This document shows positions 4,099 to 17,117 of a DNA stretch of 24,193 bases, piece by piece. The translations under genes and the position numbers were made by a program. Each line of letters opens with the position of its first letter. Positions within the stretch are counted from its first letter, which is position 1. The notes under the pieces were generated by a model. The model did not search any database. It worked only from the letters and a program-made list of their open reading frames with translations, and was not told the DNA's origin. Source of the stretch: a virus; IMG/VR virus record IMGVR_UViG_3300025138_000345, positions 1 through 24,193 of that record; one strand, written 5' to 3'.

Positions 4099-7000
4099 TT
4101 AATTTACTAGTCCCGCTGTGTTTCTTTCATAACCGTCAATCAAAGAGTCAAAGAAACTCTTTAAAAACAAGTAGTTTCTAAACGGCAAACCCCAAGATGC
4201 CTGATCAAGATCGCCGCTTAACGTACCGCCAATTAAATTCCTTGCCGCAGAAGGCCCAGCCCCCATTAAATCAAACGCTGCATCTGTGCCAGTTGGCTCA
4301 AATCCGTACTTTGGACCCCAAGGCATAGGATTAACGCCAAATGCTCCAATAGCTGTTCCTTGAGCAAGATCATGATAATTATGAATTACGCCCATAACGC
4401 CAGATTGATCAATAGCCCTTCTTAGCCGCTGATCTAGCGTCATGTTTTCCCAGTGATTGCTGTCTGTTTTAATTGCAGCAACCATGTAAGCCAAACCTAA
4501 TATCGACGCAATTCCTGACAATCTCTGAGCAGTTGGTTCATCCAAATTAGCAAGCAATATTTTGTTAGTTGCAGCTAAAGAGTAATTCCAAAAAGTAAAT
4601 GGCAATGCCATTAAGCCAGATTGAACTTTCCAATAATCTCCCTGCTGTTCCCAGCCCATTGCTTCCGCTGCCGTATCAACTTTTGCATTGCGTTTAAGGT
4701 AAACAACACCGTCTGAAATGATAGGTTTGTCTGCCGCTGTTGCCGCAATAATAGTGTTTTCGTTGCCTTGCTTAACTGCGGCTCTAAAATAACGGACTAA
4801 ATTTTCGTCGTTCCATTTGTCGGTATTTGTCATCCACATACCGTCGACTTCTTCCATTGGCTCGTCGGCCATTTTCTTAGCCATTGCTTTGGAAATGCCA
4901 AATCGTGACAAATATGCAATTTCTTCTGGCGTTGCCAAATCATCAGCAACCAGATTGATTTTATCCAGCAAATCAGGAACCCGTATGCTGGCATCCAATT
5001 CTTTTAATCTGGACGTTACTGCTGCAAGCCCATTCCAAAGAAAGTATTTGTTTGCAGCCACTTTAAGATAAAACTCAGGCCGAGAAGTCATTGCAGCTTC
5101 AACGCCAGTTTCGGAAAAACCAGACAATGCTGTACCCATATGAATGTCCATAATGGCACCAGATTTATGTCCTTCTAGCGCACCAGCTTTTGAAATCTGC
5201 CCTAAAGCACTATCCAAATCATGGAATGCTGCTTGGAAAGATCGCGCTGCGCCGTGGCGCATAATAAGCGCACCAAATTCAGTAACCGCTGATAATGCTG
5301 ACGTTCCCATAAATGCCAAGTGGCTCCAATCTTTAAGAACCATTGCCGCCCTGTTGTCGATACGATCAGGGTTTTTGTAAACGCGATTAACAACCCTATC
5401 CACAGAGTTAAGAATGTCGCGCTCCATTTCAGAAGCGTGATCTTTCGCTGCTTTTTGTATCTTACGATCAGTGTCAAAGAATATACGTTGTAAAGGATCA
5501 ATAAATTGCTTGGGAATGCCAAACTTATCGTCTATCGCTTGAAATAAACCATGCAATTTATCAGCGTCTTGCAATTTGCTACGACCTATAAATGCTTCAA
5601 TTCTTGTATCAATATTTTTAGTAGGCATTAAACGTTCAAAACGAGTAGTAGATACACCAGTTTTTTTAACCATAGTAGGTCGCGGCCCTTTAGAACCAGA
5701 AACTATTGTGAATCTAAAAGGTTCATTGCCAGAAGAAAATTTCCATGTGTTTCTACCTAACACAAATTTGTCAAAAACATCTTGACCAACATTATTAATT
5801 AAAAACCCGTCAATAGCTTTAACTCTGCCAGCGGTATCTTTAGCAACATTGCCCATATGAATGTCTACTGGCATGTATCCAGCTTGCTCAATGTCTTTTA
5901 GAAATAATTGATATTCAGCTTCGGATACGCGCGTGTTTACTTTAGGCATAACCTCGACGTATAATTCACCAACTCTGGTTCTAAATTCTGGCGCTAGAAT
6001 AAAGTCGCTATCGCCATAGTTTTCTTTAAATTTAGTAACGCGAACAACTTGGCCTCGGCTTTCAAATACCTTTTTAAAAACGCCTTCGCCTAAATATTTT
6101 AAATCTCTAAAGCCAGCTTCATACAAGACTTCGGCAACTTTAGCTAAATCAGGATGCTGTGCAGATAATGCTTCAAAAGATTTGTCTGTTTTTAATTTTA
6201 AAGAGATTGGGCCGCGCCCCAAAAACTTGTCAAACCACCGAACTTTTATTGCAGCAGTTTCAAGTGGATTGCTTTCTAAAAGATTTGCTGCCGTTGTGCT
6301 TACTGCATTAGAAGTTTTACTAAGTTGTTTGCGTAATTCTTTTTCAAACTTGGCAATCTCAGCATCACGGCGCGGCAATTCATCTAACGCTCTGTTAGCA
6401 AATAAAACAGTTTCATTCTGTTTCATTTTTGCTATCTGCTCTCCTAATCCTTGTTCCCAAGTTACACCGTCTGCTGGTCGAGCAAACGTCCGAGCCATTT
6501 CAATAGCTGGCCCCATTCGATCCACATACATCTTGCCGACGATGTTGTAGTCCGTTTCTATAAAGTCAGCGATCCCGTTGCCTAATGGCCCGTCTTTTAA
6601 CAACAGCGAGTTTTGAATGTTAAACACACGGCTGCGCCCAAACGTAGGGCGATGCGCTTCGCGGAATTGAGCAAGCTGACTAGGCTCACCTTCTTGCAGC
6701 AAATCATCAATAAACTTGTCGGCTCTGGCCTCAATAGCTTTAGGCGCAGTGCTGGCGCGTACTGTTGTCCATTGTGCGTATTCTGGCGCGCTTAAGTAGT
6801 CTAATGACAGTTTAGTTTCTCTTGCTTGAAGCCTTGCTTTTTGTTTATGCCAAGCTTTAGTTTTGAACTTTTTTGCTTTATGACGATTTAAAGCGTCTGT
6901 TGCTTCCTCAAGCAACTCTTTAGCTTCTTTTTTGCCTAACACCCAAGTATCAATGTACGGCTGCTGCTTCATATGAGGCATAACAACCTGACGCTTAAAC

Positions 7001-9525
7001 GCCTCGCGGTTTTCTTCAATAGCTTTTGCCAGATAAACCCGCGTAAAGTATTCTTCTGCTGGACCTGTTTCCGCAGATTTTGCCTGGTCTCTTAATTCTT
7101 GAATGCGGATTAAATCGTCGTTTAGCTCACCTAAACGCGCTGCATATCTATCTTTGTCAGATTTACTTAAAATAACATCAATGTCTTTTTTTACTTGAAT
7201 TTCAACTTCATCAAGAGCCATTAGCTTTTTAGAAATCAAACCGCCTTTTTGAGAAATAACGCCAAATTCTACAGCCGGTATTCTAAACTTTTCGTAGAAG
7301 GACTTAACTTCCGTCGCCATTTCGTTAATTTCGGGAATGCTGTGTTTTTGACCAGTAATTAAAGTCTTAGAAACCTGATCCCTAAATTCCCCAATCGACA
7401 AGGCTTTGCTACCGTCTGCCTTGTTGCGAGTTACGGCTTTGTTAATGTTCATGCCAAGAAATTCGTTTTCATCAAGGCCAAGGTATTTGTTAAATATCCT
7501 GTCCTCAGACGCAATCATTGTATCAACTTCGCCGTTCCACGTATCTCTGCGAGAAAATACAGATGCGACGCCCATTCCGTCCGCGTCAGACCCACGCGCA
7601 AACCCGCCATCGTGAATAAGCAAATCCATTAATGTGCGTGTTTCTGCATTTAACGCATTTCTGTGAATACGTTTGTAGGGGCTGTCAGTTAAACGGGCCA
7701 ACGCTTCCAGCCTTGAGTTTTGCAATATTTGGTTATTTTCAGCGCGGTATTTACTAACTGCTTCGTCAGCTTCTTCTATAGCTTTGCGAACAAACCCAGC
7801 TTGGACTTTTCCAAGAATAGGTATTTCAACACCATCAATATTAACCTTAGCCTCCGCAGACCTAAGACGCTCCATAGATGCCGCTTTTTGAATTTGCCAT
7901 TCAGCAAGTTCGTTTGGTGTAGACACGTTTTCTGGTGTATTTCCCCGTTTGTACCATTCCAAAGTAGAGCGTTCATCAACTAGGATTTCCCCATTGTGAA
8001 CAGCAACGCCTTCGTTTTCTTTTAATTTGGTTCTAATTTCTGGCTTTAAATCTTTTTCGTCAACAAAACGTACTTTAGCTGTTTTGTCACCGCCAATATC
8101 CAAGTTGTCAGAATTGCGGGATATGCCTCTGCTTGCAGCAATTTGCTGCGTCATATCGTTAATTAACGTGTCTCGCGCACCTCTGCCGTACATGCCGCCA
8201 AAGCCACCGCCTAATAGCCCCGCAGCGCCCGTCGCAATGCCTACACGCGCTAAACTATCCATTCCTGTCGCACTAGGGTCATAACCAGACCTAAGTTGCT
8301 CTAAACCCGCTTCTACGGGAAAAGCCGCCGCCGAACTTTTTAAACCTGTTCTAATGAAATTTCCGCCAAAACCACGAATAGCACTTGCGCCAAAGCCAAT
8401 AGGCACAGCCATGGTAAGCAAACTGTCTGGATTAGACATTGCGCCTAAAAACATTGCAGACGCATGATTGCTTACTTGCCGCCGACGATTGCGTTTTTGT
8501 TCAGCCTTTATATTTGTAAGCAAGAAATTGTAATGCGGTCTGCTAATAGCTTTAGAAAGATACCTAGCTTCTGAAATTCCCAATCCTGTTCTTCTAGCTT
8601 CGGCAACACCATCAAACTCAGTATTTACATAACGAACTTTGTCTATTTCGTGTTTAACGTGCCGCACAATTCCTGCGTCTGTCCATTCGTCTTTAAACGT
8701 CTGCCACCATGTATCAGATAATTGCTGACCGCCGCCGCCAGACCCGCCTCTTGTTTTGTAACGGTCTTCGTAAGGTTTATTGCTTACAGGCGCTAATACG
8801 CCAGTATCACTATCATTATCTCCTTCGGATCCTTTTTCTAATTCAAGCCCTTTTCTCCAAGGGGGTATAGTTCCGCTAACTTCATCTGTTGGATAGAACT
8901 GCCTGTCTGGATTAAACCCTGCTGAAAAAGTTCGTAACGGGACATTTTCACCATGACCATTAGAACCAACAGTACTGCTTCCAGAAATGACAGGTGTACC
9001 GCTGTTTTCTAAAACACTTTGAAATTCATTTGCACCTACTTGTGCAGAGTTATTTGAAGTGCCGTCGTGGTATCCTTGACCTCGTTTTAAACGGTGTCTT
9101 TTTTTTCTATGATATGTGTCTTGCAAAACAGGCAAAGCTGCCCATTCCATAGAAAGTCTATTGCCAAATTCTTCTGTAGATATACGGCCTGATTTCCAAG
9201 CAGGATAACCTCGTCTATTTAACAAATGTAAATTTGCTTTGTCTTGAGTTTCTTCGTTATACAAATCGTCTAGATTAATTACGCCATTACGCACTAAACC
9301 AGACAGCGTTGTATAAACAATTTGCCCTGCGCCAGCAGCACTAAATTGTCTTTCTAATGGCAACTCGGTGCGATTTCTTTGTTGCCAATGCAAAACTTCT
9401 TTAACTGTCAATTCAGTCAAAGGTTTGTCGGGACGAATTTCCGTCCCATGGTTCCACATATTATAATCGCTTTCACCTTCGATGCTGTAGATAAAATCTA
9501 AAAGGTTGCGTTGCTGGGCGTCCAT
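4099..9525 (-). CDS. Giant internal virion / DNA-ejection protein (T7 gp16-like) with lysozyme and kinase-like domains
   Basis: 1808 residues, the third of three consecutive internal virion genes and the counterpart of T7 gp16, which forms the ejection channel across the envelope. Residues 1-135 resemble a GH104-type lysozyme: FIYSIEGE with probable catalytic E16, AAGAGQIV (59-70 region), then QDKA, NRRGYPAW and MEWAALP in family order. Residues 145-270 are a low-complexity Ser/Gly/Asn linker. Glycine-rich hydrophobic segments at about 365-395 and 425-450 may insert into membrane. Residues 550-1090 are mostly charged helices. Residues about 1140-1250 look kinase-like (listed separately). The C-terminal 400 residues are helical with hydrophobic stretches near 1400-1425 and 1665-1685. 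The start ATG overlaps the previous stop (TAATG). It is larger than T7 gp16, as expected from the extra domain. Parts of it resemble the polyvalent proteins of phages and conjugative elements. Confidence 0.9.
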   Translation of the reverse strand: MDAQQRNLLDFIYSIEGESDYNMWNHGTEIRPDKPLTELTVKEVLHWQQRNRTELPLERQFSAAGAGQIVYTTLSGLVRNGVINLDDLYNEETQDKANLHLLNRRGYPAWKSGRISTEEFGNRLSMEWAALPVLQDTYHRKKRHRLKRGQGYHDGTSNNSAQVGANEFQSVLENSGTPVISGSSTVGSNGHGENVPLRTFSAGFNPDRQFYPTDEVSGTIPPWRKGLELEKGSEGDNDSDTGVLAPVSNKPYEDRYKTRGGSGGGGQQLSDTWWQTFKDEWTDAGIVRHVKHEIDKVRYVNTEFDGVAEARRTGLGISEARYLSKAISRPHYNFLLTNIKAEQKRNRRRQVSNHASAMFLGAMSNPDSLLTMAVPIGFGASAIRGFGGNFIRTGLKSSAAAFPVEAGLEQLRSGYDPSATGMDSLARVGIATGAAGLLGGGFGGMYGRGARDTLINDMTQQIAASRGISRNSDNLDIGGDKTAKVRFVDEKDLKPEIRTKLKENEGVAVHNGEILVDERSTLEWYKRGNTPENVSTPNELAEWQIQKAASMERLRSAEAKVNIDGVEIPILGKVQAGFVRKAIEEADEAVSKYRAENNQILQNSRLEALARLTDSPYKRIHRNALNAETRTLMDLLIHDGGFARGSDADGMGVASVFSRRDTWNGEVDTMIASEDRIFNKYLGLDENEFLGMNINKAVTRNKADGSKALSIGEFRDQVSKTLITGQKHSIPEINEMATEVKSFYEKFRIPAVEFGVISQKGGLISKKLMALDEVEIQVKKDIDVILSKSDKDRYAARLGELNDDLIRIQELRDQAKSAETGPAEEYFTRVYLAKAIEENREAFKRQVVMPHMKQQPYIDTWVLGKKEAKELLEEATDALNRHKAKKFKTKAWHKQKARLQARETKLSLDYLSAPEYAQWTTVRASTAPKAIEARADKFIDDLLQEGEPSQLAQFREAHRPTFGRSRVFNIQNSLLLKDGPLGNGIADFIETDYNIVGKMYVDRMGPAIEMARTFARPADGVTWEQGLGEQIAKMKQNETVLFANRALDELPRRDAEIAKFEKELRKQLSKTSNAVSTTAANLLESNPLETAAIKVRWFDKFLGRGPISLKLKTDKSFEALSAQHPDLAKVAEVLYEAGFRDLKYLGEGVFKKVFESRGQVVRVTKFKENYGDSDFILAPEFRTRVGELYVEVMPKVNTRVSEAEYQLFLKDIEQAGYMPVDIHMGNVAKDTAGRVKAIDGFLINNVGQDVFDKFVLGRNTWKFSSGNEPFRFTIVSGSKGPRPTMVKKTGVSTTRFERLMPTKNIDTRIEAFIGRSKLQDADKLHGLFQAIDDKFGIPKQFIDPLQRIFFDTDRKIQKAAKDHASEMERDILNSVDRVVNRVYKNPDRIDNRAAMVLKDWSHLAFMGTSALSAVTEFGALIMRHGAARSFQAAFHDLDSALGQISKAGALEGHKSGAIMDIHMGTALSGFSETGVEAAMTSRPEFYLKVAANKYFLWNGLAAVTSRLKELDASIRVPDLLDKINLVADDLATPEEIAYLSRFGISKAMAKKMADEPMEEVDGMWMTNTDKWNDENLVRYFRAAVKQGNENTIIAATAADKPIISDGVVYLKRNAKVDTAAEAMGWEQQGDYWKVQSGLMALPFTFWNYSLAATNKILLANLDEPTAQRLSGIASILGLAYMVAAIKTDSNHWENMTLDQRLRRAIDQSGVMGVIHNYHDLAQGTAIGAFGVNPMPWGPKYGFEPTGTDAAFDLMGAGPSAARNLIGGTLSGDLDQASWGLPFRNYLFLKSFFDSLIDGYERNTAGLVN
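5776..6108 (-). other. Protein-kinase-like (Kinase-PolyVal-like) domain inside the ejection protein
   Basis: Residues about 1140-1250 of the 1808-residue protein show kinase-fold landmarks in order. There is a glycine-rich loop LGEGVFKKVFE (1145-1155) and a beta-3-like strand QVVRVTKF (1159-1166), where the usual lysine position reads Arg, with K1165 close by. A hinge-like strand ELYVEVMPKV (1187-1196) follows. The catalytic-loop-like VDIHMGNV (1220-1227) has D1221 and N1226 five residues apart as in eukaryotic-type kinases and aminoglycoside phosphotransferases. KAIDGF (1236-1241) has D1239 at the DFG position. Kinase domains are described in large polyvalent proteins delivered by phages and conjugative elements, which fits a protein ejected into the host. 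The domain is short, so activity is uncertain; it could be a divergent or inactive fold. Confidence 0.6.
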
Positions 9526-12500
9526 TATTTAAACCAATCTGGATTTTCTTGCTTGTAAGTTTCAAGCATTTTTTTGGCTTCCGGAGCTGTTATCTTCCAG
9601 CCGTTGTCCCTCATTTCAAGTATTAAAATTTCTATATGGAATGATGGAGATTGCCGTTGTTTTTCTGAGAAACCTGAAATTATTACATCCCGTAAATATC
9701 GACCATCATCATCATTTTTGTCCCAGAGTTCTGAAACTTTAATTTTAGTATCATTACCTTCAATCGTATTATTTAAAACAGTGTTAGCTCTTTTTGCTGA
9801 AATTGGCCTATCAACAACTAACGCTTCATCTTTTGCTGTTCCTCTATTTGCGCCAGTTTTGTCTTTACCAACGTATAGTTCAGCTGCGTGTTGCGACTTT
9901 TCTTGACCAGCAACTACACCACCAACAACTGCTTCTGTACCTTCACCAACAATATCAACAGTTGCTTTTGCACCAGCCATGAAATCAGCATCTGCTTTTT
10001 CAAGCATAGTGCTGTCGCTGTCTGCTGCACCGCCTTGATCGGTTGCATCGCTTACAGGAACAGCCATACCGCCGCCCATAAGTTTAAAGAAATTAAAGTC
10101 GCTATCAAAAATTGAACCGTCATTTATGTCGTTTGCCAAATCCTCAAATTGCTGGCTTGTAAATCGCTCTACTGCGGCTGTGTGATCTGCTAACGGTTGA
10201 TATGGTTCTTCTGGATTTATAACATTCCACAACCCAGCTTCGTCGCGCATTAAAATTCTGTAAGCTGGATTATCGCCACTGCTCGGCACATATTCCGTCA
10301 TGTAATGAACGCCAGCTACATAAAGTTCATTATCTTCAAAATCATCATACTTTGCACTAAAAGTACCAGATTTTAGAATTTCCTTAATTTTATGATCGAT
10401 AACCCCGTCAAGGATTGTAAATCCCATTTTTCTTGAGCCATAATCTTTTCTGTAAATTTCCGCTTCTTCATGCGTCATAAACAAATCAGCAGTGGCCATA
10501 TCTTCAACAGCTTCAACAACAGGCTTTTTAATATTTCGCATTGCCCATTTACCCAAAGCTTTCCAAGCTGTCGCTTCGGGAGGGTCTTTCATATACATAT
10601 CAGGCGCGTGCATAGTTCTGCGCGTTGTGTATTTGCTGCTTTCAAAACGACCAGCAAAAGCATTGCGGGTCATTTGCAAAGCTTCTTCTACTGGATTTCC
10701 ATGCTTGCTTTGTGCTTGCAATAAAAACGCACTTTTAAAGTAAATTGCGGCTTGCTGCATTTCAGACGGGTCTACAACTTCACCGTCTTGATGAAACGCT
10801 TTGTCAGGAAATATATGCTCAAGCAAACCTTTTGGCTGAGAAAGCCACGCAGCTACCGCGTTATCAATTTCATTTCCTTCAATACCAATTAACGTGCCAG
10901 CTTGGTTAGGGTTCCAGAAGTTTCGCCAAGTTTGGTCTGCTTCTTTCATGATAAATTTATCAAGCATTTGACCGTAAATAGCGTCGCCGTTTCCTTCTTT
11001 GTCTATTTCGCTTATTCTTTGAACATAACCAGTTGCTTGCTCTAGCGCATAATCAAAGCTGGAACCTTGATCGTGCATAATCTCAAGCATTTGCATAAAA
11101 GCGTGGCCTTCTTCGCCAAACGCATCAACAGTTACGTCTTTAACATTGCCTGTTAATCCAGAATTACCTTGTTCTTTAAAATCTTTGTAAAGCGTAAACA
11201 AATTAAAAGCTTGGTCGTGATCTAAGCTATGCTCCCAAGAGCGCAATGCTTCTTTAATTGCAGTTGGCACATTGCCATTATGTTTTGAAATTTCAACTAT
11301 TTCATGACGTTGTTTTTCTGTCATAGGAACAAGCTTGCCTTTTGCATTAGGCACCATTCCTGTTTTAAACATTTCCGCTGTAATTGGCATTTGTTTGCCA
11401 TTAACAATCGGCAATCCAATTTCTGCGCCAAGCCAAGTGTTGTAAAGAGGCGCAATTTTTTTATCTAACGGTATATCACCTTGAATTACTTGTTCTAATA
11501 ATCCTCTGTTTTCAATATCAGTTTGAGCTTGTTTTTCTCTTGCGTTGGCTTGTGAAATGTAAGTTCCAAGTAATGCTGCAAATCTATCGCCAGCCGCTTT
11601 GTTGTAAGTTTTGCCTAAAGCAAAATCGCCCGGAATTGTAGCGACACCTTCGTTCATTGGAAAAATAGCCGTCCAGTTTTCTTGAAAACCTTCTTCTATA
11701 TCTGGATGACCCATAATTACGTTATAATCTGGGAAAAAATTAGCTAACGCTTCTGCTTCCTTTTGACTTCTAGGCATTTCTAATGCGTGGCTAAGATTAA
11801 TTAAATCTTTTGCTTTAGCTGTCCTTGGATTAAGATCGGCATCTGCAAAAATACGAGCATGTGCTGTTGCATCTAACAGCGTTTGAATGTGTTTTTGCTT
11901 TTGGTCTCTAGCTAGAATATCTTCCTGTTCATTCATTATTCTAGTCATATAGCCAATCATATTAGCTCTAGCTAAATCTGGCTGTCCGCTAGCAATAAGA
12001 CCAATTAAATTCATTCTTGCAGACTTAATATAAGGAGGATAACTGCTGCGGCGAATGTCTTTGTCCAACAGCATTTGCGCTTGACCAACGCTAAACTGTG
12101 CATCTCCTAATTCTTTTTGTGCAATTGTTTGAAACGCACCTCTAAATTCTGGCGGTAATCCGTCTTCTAATTCACCTAAACTTGCAACGACAGCTTTTTC
12201 AAATCCTTCTAAATCGTTTTCATATTCAATCTGCGTTTCATCAATACGCATTTTTGCAGCCGTGCCGATTTCATCAATCATTCGGTCAGTAATACCCGCG
12301 TCATATGTTTGACGGGCAATGCGCCCCATTTCTGCCGCTCTGTTTTCGGGAATTTGAGGCGCACCAGTTTTAGGGTCTTTATTAAAGATTGCCTCCCTAA
12401 CCATTGCCTTGCCTTTAAGTTCAGCTTCTCCTGCAAGCATACGTCCCATTTGGCGAGAGGTTTCAATAATTCCCTCAGCAACATTACTAAGAACTTCGCC

Positions 12501-12578
12501 CATTGGGTTGTTAGGCATTTGGACAGGCTGGATAGAGCGTGTGTCTCTAACTTCAATTGGCTTACGAACTACGGGCAT
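9525..12578 (-). CDS. Internal virion protein (T7 gp15-like position)
   Basis: 1017 residues, mostly helical and charged, lying between the gp14-like and gp16-like genes; this position and size suit the second ejection protein, which in T7 forms part of the internal core and periplasmic tunnel. The N-terminus (MPVVRKPIEVRDTRSIQPVQ) is proline-rich, followed by helices with the segment NVAEGIIETSRQMGRMLAGE. A stretch near residues 830-900 is rich in Ala, Gly, Asp and Val (SDATDQGGAADSDSTM; AVVGGVVAGQ) and may be flexible or membrane-active. No enzymatic motif is recognised. The start has an AGGA site (ATAGGAATGACTAATG) and lies nine bases after the previous stop. Its stop overlaps the next ATG by one base (TAATG), suggesting coupled synthesis of the two large ejection proteins. 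The call rests on context more than sequence. Confidence 0.75.
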   Translation of the reverse strand: MPVVRKPIEVRDTRSIQPVQMPNNPMGEVLSNVAEGIIETSRQMGRMLAGEAELKGKAMVREAIFNKDPKTGAPQIPENRAAEMGRIARQTYDAGITDRMIDEIGTAAKMRIDETQIEYENDLEGFEKAVVASLGELEDGLPPEFRGAFQTIAQKELGDAQFSVGQAQMLLDKDIRRSSYPPYIKSARMNLIGLIASGQPDLARANMIGYMTRIMNEQEDILARDQKQKHIQTLLDATAHARIFADADLNPRTAKAKDLINLSHALEMPRSQKEAEALANFFPDYNVIMGHPDIEEGFQENWTAIFPMNEGVATIPGDFALGKTYNKAAGDRFAALLGTYISQANAREKQAQTDIENRGLLEQVIQGDIPLDKKIAPLYNTWLGAEIGLPIVNGKQMPITAEMFKTGMVPNAKGKLVPMTEKQRHEIVEISKHNGNVPTAIKEALRSWEHSLDHDQAFNLFTLYKDFKEQGNSGLTGNVKDVTVDAFGEEGHAFMQMLEIMHDQGSSFDYALEQATGYVQRISEIDKEGNGDAIYGQMLDKFIMKEADQTWRNFWNPNQAGTLIGIEGNEIDNAVAAWLSQPKGLLEHIFPDKAFHQDGEVVDPSEMQQAAIYFKSAFLLQAQSKHGNPVEEALQMTRNAFAGRFESSKYTTRRTMHAPDMYMKDPPEATAWKALGKWAMRNIKKPVVEAVEDMATADLFMTHEEAEIYRKDYGSRKMGFTILDGVIDHKIKEILKSGTFSAKYDDFEDNELYVAGVHYMTEYVPSSGDNPAYRILMRDEAGLWNVINPEEPYQPLADHTAAVERFTSQQFEDLANDINDGSIFDSDFNFFKLMGGGMAVPVSDATDQGGAADSDSTMLEKADADFMAGAKATVDIVGEGTEAVVGGVVAGQEKSQHAAELYVGKDKTGANRGTAKDEALVVDRPISAKRANTVLNNTIEGNDTKIKVSELWDKNDDDGRYLRDVIISGFSEKQRQSPSFHIEILILEMRDNGWKITAPEAKKMLETYKQENPDWFK

Positions 12579-13178: not shown

Positions 13179-15563
13179 TCACACATATACATTGAGAACA
13201 GCCCCACGCATGACTAATCGCCCTGCTGTGTTGCCCTCTATTTTTAAAGTAGGATCGCGGCCCCAAAGACCGATGTAATATTCTCGCCAATCATCTACAG
13301 GAATAACTGCCAAATCATCGGCTACGTCTAATCCGGTGAGAACATCGACGCCTTGTATTGTTCCTGTTGCTGCTTTTTCCCAGCTTATAGTTGCTGAGAC
13401 TAAGCGCTGCTGTTGACCAATGCGCGTACCTGTTTGAATGCCAGCAACGGGAGCATGAAACTCTACGTTCCAACTCATAGGATCACCAATAGTTACGCTG
13501 GTTACGCTGGTGTCATTAATAAATGCTTTTGTGGACGCAGCCACAGACACATCTCCGTATGTGTAATAGCCAAAATACGCTTGCTGCACCCTGCCATCAA
13601 TGTTGCTTGCAGTCCAAGAGGTTGTTGCTGAACTGTTTGTTAAAACCTCGGAGAAGTCTGTTGTAATGTAATTCTCGCTTTCAGTATCAAACCTAAGAAT
13701 TACATATTCATTAGCACCCGACGATGTTCCGTTTACGTCTAAATTGACTTGCCTTTTGCCTACTGCAAACAAGCGCGTTCCTAGCGTAGCAACAGAAGTA
13801 AAACTGCCGTAATCTAAAGTCCAACGCATCCAGCCAAAGCTATCATCAGCACGACTAGAGTGTAAAACCAACATTGCACCGTCTGTTTGATTTGCAAAGA
13901 GCAAGTACGGAGTTGTAATAATTGCAGAGGCCCCGTCAAATACTGTAACATCTTTTGGTTCCTTTACCCAATCTGGAACAACAATTGAGGCTGGCAATGA
14001 CGAGTATTCTGTAATGCGTGTGTCAGTGGCAAATTCACGAATAACCAACCCGTTAAAATCAACGTAAAATACACCGCCATCAAATTTGTGTGGTTGCGTG
14101 TATGACGCGCCATGTTCTGTCGCGGACACAATACGCACCGAGGCTTGAGATATAGCTTCAGTTGTACTTCCTGGGACATAAATTTCGTCGTTATCTGTAA
14201 AAAACATTAAGTCATATGCTGCAACAACATGTCTAATTCTGGATTGGTTTCCAATGCCGTACAAAGCTATTGCTTCAGTTACATTACCTGTGCCTAAATC
14301 AAAGTTTCTAAATTGACCGAATTGCGATCCCCAAGCTGCATTTGGCAAAGAGTTTGTACCCGCCATCCAAAGTCTTCGCTCATGCACCGCGCATGTTGTA
14401 GGCCAACCTCTTGCTGTAGAAAATGCCGGTTCTTTTAAGCCTTTAATTCCAGACAACACAAAACACAAAACACTAGCGCCGCCAGCTAATATGTCATTGG
14501 TCGCATTTGCATTTCCATAAACTTCAAAAGTATCAAGACTTATTATTCTTGAAATTGTGTAAGCAGCGCTAATGCCTGATGATGTGCTAGTTGAAGCAGT
14601 ATTAAGAGGTGCTAATGAGGCTGTAGTTAATACTAATCTTGCATCATCAGACCTAGACAATCCTGCAAAATACACTTTATCGCCCACACTAAGCCCGTGG
14701 TTAAAAAAAGAAACCTCGACTAATCTTGAGTCTTTTTTAAGGTAAAAAGGATCTGTATCTAATTTTTTTTGAACGTCAGTTATAACTGTTACTCGCGCTT
14801 CTCTAGCGCCAATTACCGACGTTATTTTATATTCGCCGTCTAATAATCTAACGTGTGTATTTACATAATCTGCTGTAAACAAATCTTGGTTAGATGTTAT
14901 TGTACCTGTTCCGGTTAATGTACTTGCAGTTGGAACGTTTGGAAATGTAGCGCTGTCAATTAACTCAACGCCCTGCAAGCGTGATGTATAAGCTTGAGAA
15001 GTTCCTGCTGACATCCAAACATTTGCAATAATTTCTAATGAGTCATCAACAAATTGATAAAACGGCGCTTGCTGTGTACCAGTTTGCAAATCAAACCCAA
15101 AATCAAAATTACTTAACGCAAATGTTCCATCAGTCCTGCGTCTAATAATTTTAGTGTTAAATGTTGCGTCAGCTAATATTAGGCTGTCGCCTTCAGACGC
15201 TATAGATATGTAATCTACGTTTGATGTTGTTAACCAAGATTGCCCACTATATCGTATAACCATTGTAAGCGCGTCAGTGCTTGGTGTGTAAGTGTGTATT
15301 TCAATTTCTTCTTCTGATGGTTTAAACACAATTAAATATTGATTGGTGTCTGAATAGTACCAAGGCTCAATTCGTATTGCAGACGTAAAACCTTTTATAT
15401 ATTTAGTTCCCCATCTGCGCCCCAGCCGACCATCGCCTAAAACCATCATGTTATTAGCTTCGCGCACAGAAGATGTGTACGCTTGCGCGTCTTGCCTTAT
15501 TCTAAGACCTGATCCCGTTCTGCCTTTGCGAAAATCTGCGCGGAAATCTGTTAATGTTGGCAT
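13179..15563 (-). CDS. Tail tubular protein B (T7 gp12-like nozzle protein)
   Basis: 794 residues, the expected size for the gp12-type nozzle of short-tailed phages, which forms the distal tail tube and anchors the fibres. The N-terminus has the typical layout: a short start (MPTLTDFRADFRKGRTGSG), then SVREANNMMVLGDGRLGRRWGT, in which an early N-rich helix and a G-R-R-x-G-T turn are characteristic. The rest is beta-rich, with many V, T, S and aromatic residues. Later blocks such as AVHERRLWMAGT and IRHVVAAYDLMFFTDNDEIY are typical of the family's beta-propeller-like middle. It starts at 15563, sharing one base with the stop of tail tubular protein A (TGATG), with an AGGAATATCTG upstream region. 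The next gene follows nine bases after its stop. Confidence 0.9.
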   Translation of the reverse strand: MPTLTDFRADFRKGRTGSGLRIRQDAQAYTSSVREANNMMVLGDGRLGRRWGTKYIKGFTSAIRIEPWYYSDTNQYLIVFKPSEEEIEIHTYTPSTDALTMVIRYSGQSWLTTSNVDYISIASEGDSLILADATFNTKIIRRRTDGTFALSNFDFGFDLQTGTQQAPFYQFVDDSLEIIANVWMSAGTSQAYTSRLQGVELIDSATFPNVPTASTLTGTGTITSNQDLFTADYVNTHVRLLDGEYKITSVIGAREARVTVITDVQKKLDTDPFYLKKDSRLVEVSFFNHGLSVGDKVYFAGLSRSDDARLVLTTASLAPLNTASTSTSSGISAAYTISRIISLDTFEVYGNANATNDILAGGASVLCFVLSGIKGLKEPAFSTARGWPTTCAVHERRLWMAGTNSLPNAAWGSQFGQFRNFDLGTGNVTEAIALYGIGNQSRIRHVVAAYDLMFFTDNDEIYVPGSTTEAISQASVRIVSATEHGASYTQPHKFDGGVFYVDFNGLVIREFATDTRITEYSSLPASIVVPDWVKEPKDVTVFDGASAIITTPYLLFANQTDGAMLVLHSSRADDSFGWMRWTLDYGSFTSVATLGTRLFAVGKRQVNLDVNGTSSGANEYVILRFDTESENYITTDFSEVLTNSSATTSWTASNIDGRVQQAYFGYYTYGDVSVAASTKAFINDTSVTSVTIGDPMSWNVEFHAPVAGIQTGTRIGQQQRLVSATISWEKAATGTIQGVDVLTGLDVADDLAVIPVDDWREYYIGLWGRDPTLKIEGNTAGRLVMRGAVLNVYV

Positions 15564-16177
15564 CAGATATTCCTGTGAGTGCGACGGCTTTTAATAAACA
15601 TTTTAGTATCTAAACGCGGCGAGGTTCTGCCCTGCGCGTCACGCGATCTAGCTTTAATCATCATAGCTTCGCCCTGCTGAGCTAAAAACGCTGCTGTTTC
15701 TTTATCTTGAGTAATTGGCATACAAATAGCGGATGCAAGACAAAGAACATATGCTCTGCGGAAATATCCGGGCCAACTTTCTGCGCCGACTGTGTTTGTG
15801 TATTCAACAGTAACATTATCAATAGAATTAGCGTCAACATTAACCGCAATTTTAGGCCCAAATCTGTCAAAATCAGCAATAAAATCGCCTACATAAACGG
15901 TTTGAATAGTAATCGCGCTAGTAGGCAATTGATATAATCCCGTCCACGGAACAGGTGGTGTTTCTACTAATCTAGCAAGAATGGCTCTGTCTCGCGCAAA
16001 TCGCCAAGGATAAGCCGACAATTCATCTTCAAGTATGTCAGAATACAGCCTGTTAATAGTTTTTGCGGGAAGTGTTTGCTCTGTAAAAGAAGCAATAGAC
16101 GGAACGCCCAATTGCGCTAATGCCGCGTTTGCTACTTTCAAAGATGAATTTGAAACAGATAATGGCGTAACGGTCAT
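15563..16177 (-). CDS. Tail tubular protein A (T7 gp11-like gatekeeper/adaptor)
   Basis: 204 residues, an adaptor between portal and nozzle. Diagnostic blocks are KVANAALAQLGVPSIASF at the N-terminus, INRLYSDILEDELSAYPWRF (gp11-type proteins have a run of helix ending in pW-x-F/A) and WTGLYQLP. The C-terminal third, with FRRAYVLCLASAICMPIT, is helical. The frame is open to 16339, inside the capsid gene. ATG 16177 is chosen because it follows an AAAGGA site seven bases upstream and the protein family pattern begins there. The stop and the next start share a base (TGATG). The preceding 97 bases carry two stem-loops after the capsid gene. Confidence 0.88.
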   Translation of the reverse strand: MTVTPLSVSNSSLKVANAALAQLGVPSIASFTEQTLPAKTINRLYSDILEDELSAYPWRFARDRAILARLVETPPVPWTGLYQLPTSAITIQTVYVGDFIADFDRFGPKIAVNVDANSIDNVTVEYTNTVGAESWPGYFRRAYVLCLASAICMPITQDKETAAFLAQQGEAMMIKARSRDAQGRTSPRLDTKMFIKSRRTHRNI

Positions 16178-16198
16178 TTCAAATCCTTTAATTAGGTT

Positions 16199-16230
16199 GG
16201 GGAAGCGGTAGGAAGAAAACCCGCTCCCCC
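16199..16230 (-). terminator. Strong stem-loop downstream of the capsid gene
   Basis: On the minus strand GGGGGAGCGG and CCGCTTCCCC form a 10-base stem (one G-T pair) with a 12-base loop (GTTTTCTTCCTA). It lies about 45 bases after the capsid stop. There is no T run after the stem, so it may be a weak terminator, as after T7 gene 10, or a 3' stabiliser of the capsid transcript, rather than a full stop. The tail genes beyond it still need read-through or a promoter. Confidence 0.45.
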
Positions 16231-16237
16231 AGTGTTT

Positions 16238-16267
16238 AGCCAGCCCAGTCTGCCACCAGAACTGGCT
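16238..16267 (-). other. Second, weaker inverted repeat after the capsid gene
   Basis: On the minus strand AGCCAG and CTGGCT (6 bases) flank an 18-base stretch that itself contains CCAGTTCTGG-like palindromic sequence overlapping the left arm. It begins eight bases after the capsid stop codon and is followed closely by the stronger stem-loop at 16199-16230. Alternative foldings are possible. It is probably part of one structured 3' region. Confidence 0.3.
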
Positions 16268-16274
16268 GAACCAT

Positions 16275-17117
16275 TTAGGAAGGCGCTGGCGACAAAGTAG
16301 AAACTTTATACATGCCACTGTCTTCAATAATGGTTGCACCGAGCGACATTGAAGAAACGCACGACCAAGCAGAACGAGTGTTCTCGTAATCCCAGATTGT
16401 GCTGATTTCTTTGTTTATGCCGTGTCCGACTGCTGTGCGGTGCCACGCAAGGTTAGTCGCAACATTGGTTGCTGCAACGCCGTGTGCAATATTCGGGAGA
16501 GGCATCCAAAGAGTACCCATCCAGAATTTTGCAGTAAGCGATCCCTTAAAGGGCAAGTTTTCTGAGCTGACATAATCAGCGTTTGCAAACTCTGGAACCT
16601 TTAAAAATTGCGCCCATGCGTAGGGGTGCAGCGCACAGAAACGATTGCCATCGTCAGGCACTTCGTTGACTGAGAATTTAGTCACAACAGACATTGCTGT
16701 GTTAAAATCCCATACGCCTGTAGCATCACCAGCGTCAGTAGAGTTTGCGCCAGTTTCCATTGCTGCAATTAGAACTTCGTCTGTCTTTTTGCCAAGAGCA
16801 GCAGCGTGAGCGCGCGCATGTGCGCCTTTTTCATCGATGTTCTCTTTGAGCATATCCAGATCATCGATCAGCGTTGGCACGTAGTAATCTGCCATAGTTG
16901 CAGAAACTTTGCTGTGCGCTGGATCAAGAAACGTGTGTGTGCCATTACGAGTTTTAGTATTTGCCGACAGTGTTCCAAATTTTTGGAAATGCACAGTCGA
17001 GCCTTGCACAGTACCTTTGCGGGTAGTGTTAGCTAGGCGAGAACCATACTGACGATACAGTAAGTGTACGTCCGCGTTATATTCTTCAATAAACGCATTG
17101 GAGATTGTAGATGCCAT
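16275..17117 (-). CDS. Major capsid protein (HK97-fold, small podovirus type)
   Basis: 280 residues, the shell subunit. It directly follows the scaffold and GNAT genes and precedes the tail tubular genes. The N-terminus (ASTISNAFIEEYNADVHLLY) and the block RKGTVQGSTVHFQKFG, followed by SATMADYYVPTLIDDLDMLKE, are typical of the small capsid proteins of podoviruses in the Phage_capsid_2-like group. The later FCALHPYAWAQFLKVPEF and the FWMGTLWMPLPN region are the A-domain strand-helix elements commonly seen in this group. The gene has a GAGG site eight bases upstream of ATG (CTGAGGCTAAAAAAATG) and an unusually long leader for this window, with an inverted repeat. Two stem-loops follow it. No decoration domain is fused. 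Confidence 0.88.
   Translation of the reverse strand: MASTISNAFIEEYNADVHLLYRQYGSRLANTTRKGTVQGSTVHFQKFGTLSANTKTRNGTHTFLDPAHSKVSATMADYYVPTLIDDLDMLKENIDEKGAHARAHAAALGKKTDEVLIAAMETGANSTDAGDATGVWDFNTAMSVVTKFSVNEVPDDGNRFCALHPYAWAQFLKVPEFANADYVSSENLPFKGSLTAKFWMGTLWMPLPNIAHGVAATNVATNLAWHRTAVGHGINKEISTIWDYENTRSAWSCVSSMSLGATIIEDSGMYKVSTLSPAPS

What the first reader, a model, noticed from the sequence alone, without database searches (positions are those of the whole stretch)
5776..6108. Protein-kinase-like domain embedded in the giant DNA-ejection protein
Seen: LGEGVFKKVFE, QVVRVTKF, a hinge-like strand, VDIHMGNV (D and N five residues apart) and KAIDGF occur in the order and spacing of kinase or APH catalytic cores, inside the 1808-residue gp16-like protein. 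Known: kinase domains are described in large polyvalent proteins carried into hosts by phages and conjugative elements. Inferred: the phage may inject a kinase, or a relic of one, with its DNA, to phosphorylate host proteins, counter defence or regulate the ejectosome. The beta-3 lysine position reads Arg, so activity is open.
Basis: partly seen in the sequence, partly recalled or inferred. Interest (0 to 1): 0.8.

Follow-up and report, generated by a model that had tools for sequence, protein, structure and literature searches.

The report
Mini-kinase spliced into phage ejection protein
A phage's large DNA-ejection protein carries, as an inserted module missing from its closest relatives, a stripped-down kinase-like domain also found beside toxin domains on bacterial plasmids, so the phage may deliver a tiny kinase (or kinase-shaped part) into the cell with its DNA.

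Summary
The 1808-aa ORF (4099-9525, minus) contains every named motif in kinase order. Residues ~1039-1345 form an in-frame insertion, present in the window and one ~81%-identical relative (L003) and absent from seven others up to 74% identical. Residues ~1125-1250 are homologous to an unannotated domain of Zeta-toxin proteins on Burkholderia plasmids: a profile built without phage sequences finds this ORF alone in the window (E=1e-7). The beta-3-position Arg (R1162), D1221, N1226 and D1239 are invariant in all nine aligned members. AlphaFold2 gives a confident kinase N-lobe plus catalytic/metal loops for the homologue (pLDDT 86); all 50 top PDB matches are kinase-superfamily. The window's own model is poor (pLDDT 57), but its N-lobe also matches only kinases and APHs. 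AlphaC and the helical C-lobe are missing. dN/dS (0.20 in the domain, 0.56 in the following linker) argues against a relic. Best reading: a horizontally acquired minimal kinase-fold cargo domain delivered with the ejection protein. Catalysis is open; a nucleotide-binding pseudokinase is almost as likely. Truncated kinases are already described in 'polyvalent' proteins (Iyer 2017); this is a new subtype in a new carrier: new variant of a known kind.

The parts
4099..9525 (-). Giant ejection (T7 gp16-like by position) protein, 1808 aa, carrier of the domain
   Evidence: ORF; C-terminal match phrog_16310 E=4e-17; relatives L003-L011; T7-like late gene order: terL, portal, scaffold, major capsid, tail tubular A/B, gp14-like, gp15-like, this gene, tail fibre
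9001..9504 (-). N-terminal lysozyme/transglycosylase-like domain, residues 8-175
   Evidence: tblastn to Rhizobium phage lysozyme-like/SAR endolysin transglycosylase proteins, about 39% id, E down to 7e-22
5491..6411 (-). Inserted module, residues about 1039-1345, present here and in L003, absent in L005-L011
   Evidence: multiple alignment and BLAST segments
5776..6153 (-). Minimal kinase-fold domain, residues about 1125-1250
   Evidence: profile built without phage sequences E=1e-7; PHROG kinases; structure matches
6061..6093 (-). Gly-rich loop segment LGEGVFKKVFE (1145-1155)
6040..6042 (-). R1162 at the beta-3 lysine position (VVRV), invariant in the family
5953..5955 (-). E1191 in beta-5, invariant in the family
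5863..5865 (-). D1221, catalytic-loop aspartate position (GYxxxD)
   Evidence: invariant in all nine
5848..5850 (-). N1226, metal-ligand asparagine position (D-x4-N)
   Evidence: invariant in all nine
5809..5811 (-). D1239, DFG-aspartate position (IDGF here, TDPGG in plasmid homologues)
   Evidence: invariant in all nine
5491..5775 (-). Fast-evolving linker from the domain to the conserved C-terminal part
   Evidence: dN/dS 0.56 and 53% aa identity to L003
4102..5490 (-). Conserved C-terminal ejection-protein region, residues 1346-1808
   Evidence: 54-74% id in relatives without the insertion; phrog_16310 over 1353-1603

Best explanation
Residues ~1125-1250 are a minimal kinase-fold domain: a five-stranded N-lobe with Gly-rich loop, hinge, one alphaE-like helix, catalytic loop D-x4-N and metal-binding Asp, with no alphaC and no helical C-lobe. 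It was acquired as part of an inserted ~300-residue cargo module in the ejection protein and is under purifying selection. As part of a virion protein of the gp16 type it would be carried into the infected cell with the DNA, probably exposed on the cytoplasmic side. There it would bind ATP/Mg and transfer phosphate to a nearby host or phage component, giving an advantage before any phage gene is expressed. Shown by computation: fold, conserved active-site residues, insertion, selection, and a shared domain with Zeta-toxin proteins of plasmids. Inferred: virion packaging, delivery, cytoplasmic exposure, catalysis, target, and gain (rather than loss in relatives).
For: Fold: homologue model pLDDT 86.3, pTM 0.76, Foldseek best TkArkI E=1.2e-4 and all 50 top rows kinases, VIA Z up to 10.3 over 116 residues; window model, low confidence in the catalytic loop, still matches only kinases/APHs. 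Homology: profile without phage sequences E=1e-7; tblastn to Burkholderia plasmid E=4e-4. Residues: R, E, D, N, D invariant in nine sequences. Insertion. Selection: dN/dS 0.20 in the core, unchanged motif residues, 0.56 in the linker after it. Mobility: 104 Burkholderia plasmid records, 90 typed conjugative; Zeta toxin adjacent, order reversed in L015. Context: late-gene cassette. Delivery precedent: T7 gp16 is ejected and its C-terminal part is presumed cytoplasmic (PMC8954989); phage polyvalent proteins lie by virion genes and carry C-subdomain-less kinases proposed to act like T7 kinase (PMC5512222).
Against: The beta-3 Lys is Arg throughout the family, usually a crippling change in canonical kinases (general knowledge). 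No alphaC and no canonical His two residues before the catalytic Asp. The C-lobe that binds protein substrate is missing; SteC cut back to 210-375 is inactive (PMC13395416). Window model pLDDT is 57 with the catalytic loop under 50. Only two phage contigs carry it, so phage-side conservation rests on one pair. No virion proteomics, no known substrate, and sequence homology of the carrier to T7 gp16 not detected.
Confidence: 0.48

Rival explanations
1. Pseudokinase: the domain binds nucleotide or a protein partner but does not transfer phosphate. It serves as a docking or folding module of the ejection machinery, or as a binding module that neutralises a host factor.
For: Family-wide Lys-to-Arg, no alphaC, no C-lobe, DFG replaced by IDGF/DPGG; truncated SteC lacking much of the C-lobe is inactive.
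Against: All three metal/catalytic positions D1221, N1226, D1239 are invariant between phage and plasmid branches that share only about 25-29% identity, which is unexpected if chemistry is not used. A structural role in ejection is not general, because seven relatives lack the module.
Confidence: 0.36
2. A non-protein-kinase chemistry on a kinase fold, for example AMPylation or phosphorylation of a nucleic acid or small molecule rather than protein.
For: Closest Foldseek match for the homologue and top VIA match for the window domain is TkArkI, as I recall an archaeal tRNA kinase; aminoglycoside phosphotransferases rank next for the window model; the protein-binding C-lobe is absent; the T7 gp16 C-terminal part binds DNA.
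Against: No direct evidence; differences in structural scores between kinase families are within noise.
Confidence: 0.1
3. A decaying relic of a former kinase with no current role.
For: Truncated, Arg for Lys, and absent in relatives.
Against: dN/dS 0.20 over 119 codons with no change at any motif residue, against 0.56 in the adjacent linker; the same truncated form and the same Arg are conserved in plasmid homologues.
Confidence: 0.04
4. Chance resemblance of motifs in an unrelated domain.
For: DIHMGNV by itself occurs in unrelated phage proteins such as DNA polymerases; Pfam finds no family above cut-off.
Against: Independent profile hit, only-kinase structural and PHROG matches, invariant active-site positions.
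Confidence: 0.02

Closest known systems
Unannotated domain of Zeta-toxin-family proteins on Burkholderia conjugative plasmids (e.g. WP_230459396, pMSMB2035; also Burkholderia sp. SRS-46 and a Rhodocyclaceae MAG)
   Same: Detectable homology over the whole domain; same Gly-loop, VVR[VL], E in beta-5, GY-x3-D-x4-N, and D of DPGG; also a multidomain protein of a mobile element
   Different: About 25-29% identity; sits beside Zeta toxin in a plasmid protein, not in a virion protein; DPGG in place of IDGF
Polyvalent-protein kinases of Iyer et al. 2017 (PMC5512222; Pfam Kinase-PolyVal)
   Same: Kinase core that has lost the C-terminal subdomain yet keeps active-site residues, in large multidomain phage or conjugative-element proteins
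   Different: No Kinase-PolyVal match by HMMER; the Gln of the last N-lobe strand and the His-Asp insert reported as hallmarks are not seen; reported there mainly from (pro)phages of Verrucomicrobia-Chlamydia and Bacteroidetes
T7 gp0.7 protein kinase (phrog_15752)
   Same: Sub-significant PHROG match (E=0.09-0.29) aligning the Gly-loops; FDMHSGNI resembles VDIHMGNV; TDP resembles the plasmid homologues' TDPGG
   Different: Separate early-expressed protein, longer, with VIK lysine; pairwise alignment is not significant
T7 gp16 ejection protein
   Same: Giant virion protein with N-terminal lysozyme/transglycosylase domain between gp15-like and tail-fibre genes
   Different: No detectable sequence homology; 1808 aa against 609-1337 for gp16 homologues (PMC8954989); no kinase module known to me
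TkArkI (PDB 7vnx), DAPK1, CDC7, APH(2'')
   Same: Nearest folds by Foldseek/VIA
   Different: All have a full or larger C-lobe; identity about 10-20%

Membership tests
Protein-kinase-like (PKL) superfamily fold | N-lobe five-stranded sheet with Gly-rich loop, hinge, catalytic loop and metal-binding Asp in order | tested here: met
   homologue model pLDDT 86 with all elements; only-kinase matches; window model confident only for the N-lobe
Protein-kinase-like (PKL) superfamily fold | Catalytic Asp, Asn five residues on, and DFG-position Asp conserved | tested here: met
   D1221, N1226, D1239 invariant in nine homologues
Canonical active protein kinase | beta-3 Lys paired with alphaC Glu | tested here: not met
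   Arg at the beta-3 position in all members; no helix between beta-3 and beta-4 in either model
Canonical active protein kinase | Helical C-lobe (alphaF-alphaI) for substrate binding | tested here: not met
   homology ends just after the DFG-position Asp; L003 and window diverge sharply there
Pfam PF18762 Kinase-PolyVal | Match to the family profile | tested here: not met
   not among hmmscan hits at E<=10 for whole protein, domain, or nine homologues; a profile-profile comparison was not possible
Polyvalent-protein kinases sensu Iyer 2017 | Loss of the C-terminal subdomain with active-site residues kept | tested here: met
   definition from PMC5512222
Polyvalent-protein kinases sensu Iyer 2017 | Gln in the last N-lobe strand and an insert between conserved His and Asp | tested here: not met
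   beta-5 reads LYVEVMP/LRYEILP without Gln, and no His precedes the Asp; definition
T7 gp0.7 kinase family | Significant sequence similarity | tested here: not met
   phrog_15752 E=0.09-0.29; pairwise z about 1
ABC1/ADCK/UbiB kinases (PF03109) | Score above the Pfam gathering cut-off | tested here: not met
   14.1 bits against 22.9
T7 gp16-type ejection protein (carrier) | Sequence homology to T7 gp16 | tested here: not met
   hhalign probability 0.2% against T7 gp16
T7 gp16-type ejection protein (carrier) | Gene order and N-terminal lysozyme/transglycosylase domain | tested here: met
T7 gp16-type ejection protein (carrier) | Packaged in the virion and ejected into the cell | not testable with these tools
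   needs virion proteomics and ejection assays

The most novel reading that the evidence does not exclude
A family of ~110-residue kinases that work without a beta-3 lysine, alphaC helix or C-lobe (Arg substituting for Lys), passed between conjugative-plasmid toxin proteins and phage ejection proteins, and delivered with incoming DNA as a catalytically active first-strike enzyme.
Probability: 0.33. Interest if true: 0.8.

Novelty: new variant of a known kind. Interest (0 to 1): 0.58.

Why it matters
If delivered and active, it would be a phage kinase that acts with the incoming DNA, before any phage gene is expressed, and one of the smallest kinase catalytic units. It would also give a natural presence/absence pair (window/L003 against L005/L006) to test what cargo in an ejection protein is good for. 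Independently of activity, it links a domain hidden in over 100 annotated Burkholderia Zeta-toxin plasmid proteins to a phage virion-type protein, giving that unannotated domain a fold and a testable function.

Tried and rejected
Pseudomonas phage tblastn hits at E of about 3 to 7 over the N-lobe: no hit with the family profile, chance. Vibrio phage GR7B hit is a DUF5675 protein, chance. PDB sequence search with single sequence and with profile found no kinase; only structure comparison does. Search for further phage copies: and the DIHMGNV DNA scan found only L003's contig. Class-wide genome search of the Rhodocyclaceae MAG found 1 of 369 genomes; Burkholderia 9 of 65. Four-sequence alignments misplaced the catalytic loop of the homologues, so for the window model the homologues were cut before that loop; that is one reason its catalytic loop is poorly modelled. 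T7 gp0.7 kinship: attractive by eye but not significant. T7 gp16 homology of the carrier: not found. Other ejection proteins (Pelagibacter phage Hodr, TL-2011b, Microcystis phage) show no mini-kinase. PHROG scan of the plasmid homologues gave no kinase family. Kinase families missing from the structure aligners' lists were not used as evidence.

Full report
What was checked. The record is a 24,193-bp virus contig whose genes run in T7-like late order on the minus strand: large terminase, portal, scaffold-like, major capsid, tail tubular A and B, a gp14-like internal protein, a 1017-aa gp15-like ORF, the 1808-aa ORF, tail fibre, and later an amidase. The N terminus of the 1808-aa protein resembles lysozyme-like proteins of rhizobial phages and its C-terminal part matches phrog_16310. 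It is therefore placed as a gp16-type ejection protein by position and architecture; sequence homology to T7 gp16 itself was not detectable.

The kinase stretch is an insertion. Nine related ejection-protein loci were found in viral contigs. In L005 and L006 (74% identical in the C-terminal part) and L007-L011, the protein passes from about window residue 1038 straight to about 1346 through a short helical linker; the ~307 residues between are missing. L003 (about 81% identical over residues 1132-1808) carries the stretch in frame, although its contig starts inside it, and comes from a separate record, which argues against a chimeric assembly. L004 starts after the region and is uninformative. 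GC content dips to 0.36 at 5600-6199 against 0.37-0.46 elsewhere around the gene, weakly in keeping with later acquisition; direction (gain here or loss in relatives) is not proved.

It is a kinase-fold domain, by independent routes. Pfam gives nothing for the whole protein and only a sub-threshold ABC1 match for the piece, but the PHROG matches of the piece are kinases, best E=7e-4. tblastn in plasmids finds a Burkholderia ubonensis Zeta-toxin protein at E=4e-4 across the domain. That protein's domain is unannotated in Pfam and recurs in 104 Burkholderia plasmid records, 90 typed conjugative, in nine of 65 sampled genomes of that genus, and in a Rhodocyclaceae MAG. A profile made from these alone finds, among all frames of the window, only this ORF, E=1.1e-7 over 1126-1240. 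In the nine-sequence alignment the beta-3-position Arg, a beta-5 Glu, D1221, N1226 and D1239 are invariant, at about 25-29% identity between the two branches.

Structure. The window domain alone was modelled poorly (mean pLDDT 57; N-lobe strands and alphaE partly acceptable, catalytic loop under 50), yet its 50 best Foldseek matches are kinases or aminoglycoside phosphotransferases, and VIA gives TkArkI Z 8.7 over 89 residues. The homologue pair gave pLDDT 86 and pTM 0.76, with beta1-beta3, beta4-beta5, alphaE and beta6-beta8; all 50 top PDB rows are kinases, and VIA reaches Z 10.3 over 116 residues at 2.9 A. Neither model has a helix between beta-3 and beta-4, and the homology stops shortly after the DFG-position Asp. 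So this is N-lobe plus catalytic and metal loops, without alphaC and without the helical C-lobe.

Selection. Between window and L003, dN/dS is 0.20 over the domain with no change at motif residues, 0.56 in the linker just after it and 0.06-0.09 in the conserved C-terminal region. The domain is maintained, not decaying. It is less constrained than the ejection core, as expected of cargo.

How it most likely works. By analogy with T7, whose gp16 is ejected and whose C-terminal part is presumed to lie in the cytoplasm (PMC8954989), the module would enter with the protein; hydropathy shows candidate membrane-associated stretches at 369-443 and beyond 1400, so the side on which 1125-1250 ends up is inferred. 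Iyer et al. (PMC5512222) described polyvalent-protein kinases that lost the C-terminal subdomain but kept active-site residues, and suggested that they modify host proteins like T7 kinase. I commit to a delivered minimal phosphotransferase as the leading explanation (0.48), with a nucleotide-binding pseudokinase close behind (0.36). The conserved D/N/D triad favours chemistry; the family-wide Arg for Lys, lack of alphaC, and the precedent that SteC without its C-lobe is inactive (PMC13395416) weigh against it.

Membership. It belongs to the kinase-like fold and meets the general description of C-subdomain-less polyvalent kinases. It does not match Pfam Kinase-PolyVal by HMMER and lacks two hallmarks given for that group, so it is not filed as a member. 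Resemblance to T7 gp0.7 is suggestive by eye but failed a shuffle test.

Novelty. The library searches made here returned no paper describing a kinase domain in a short-tailed phage ejection protein; the library lacks many subscription papers. I rate it a new variant of a known kind.

Noticed in passing
L013:4203-6155; L015:441-2381; L022; L023: The same mini-kinase domain sits unannotated in Zeta-toxin-family proteins of Burkholderia plasmids, with domain order reversed in L015 (mini-kinase first, Zeta second), suggesting a shuffled cassette.
   Followed up: partly
window 9525-12578: The 1017-aa gp15-like ORF upstream has no PHROG match and no convincing Pfam match, although the genes around it are recognisable.
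   Followed up: no
window 15563-16339: The tail tubular A ORF as listed (GTG start) overlaps the major capsid ORF 16275-17117; the PHROG match begins only at residue 65, so the true start is probably further downstream.
   Followed up: no
window 9001-9504: The N-terminal lysozyme-like domain of the ejection protein is closest to stand-alone SAR endolysins of Rhizobium phages (about 39% identity), hinting at a lysis gene reused as an ejection-protein domain, or the reverse.
   Followed up: no
BFVD entries A0A6J5RHA8_2 and A0A6J5KT55: Uncultured Caudovirales proteins, one a large protein labelled 2'-5' RNA ligase superfamily and one of 146 aa, match the mini-kinase homologue model structurally; other phage multidomain proteins may hold similar truncated kinases.
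   Followed up: no
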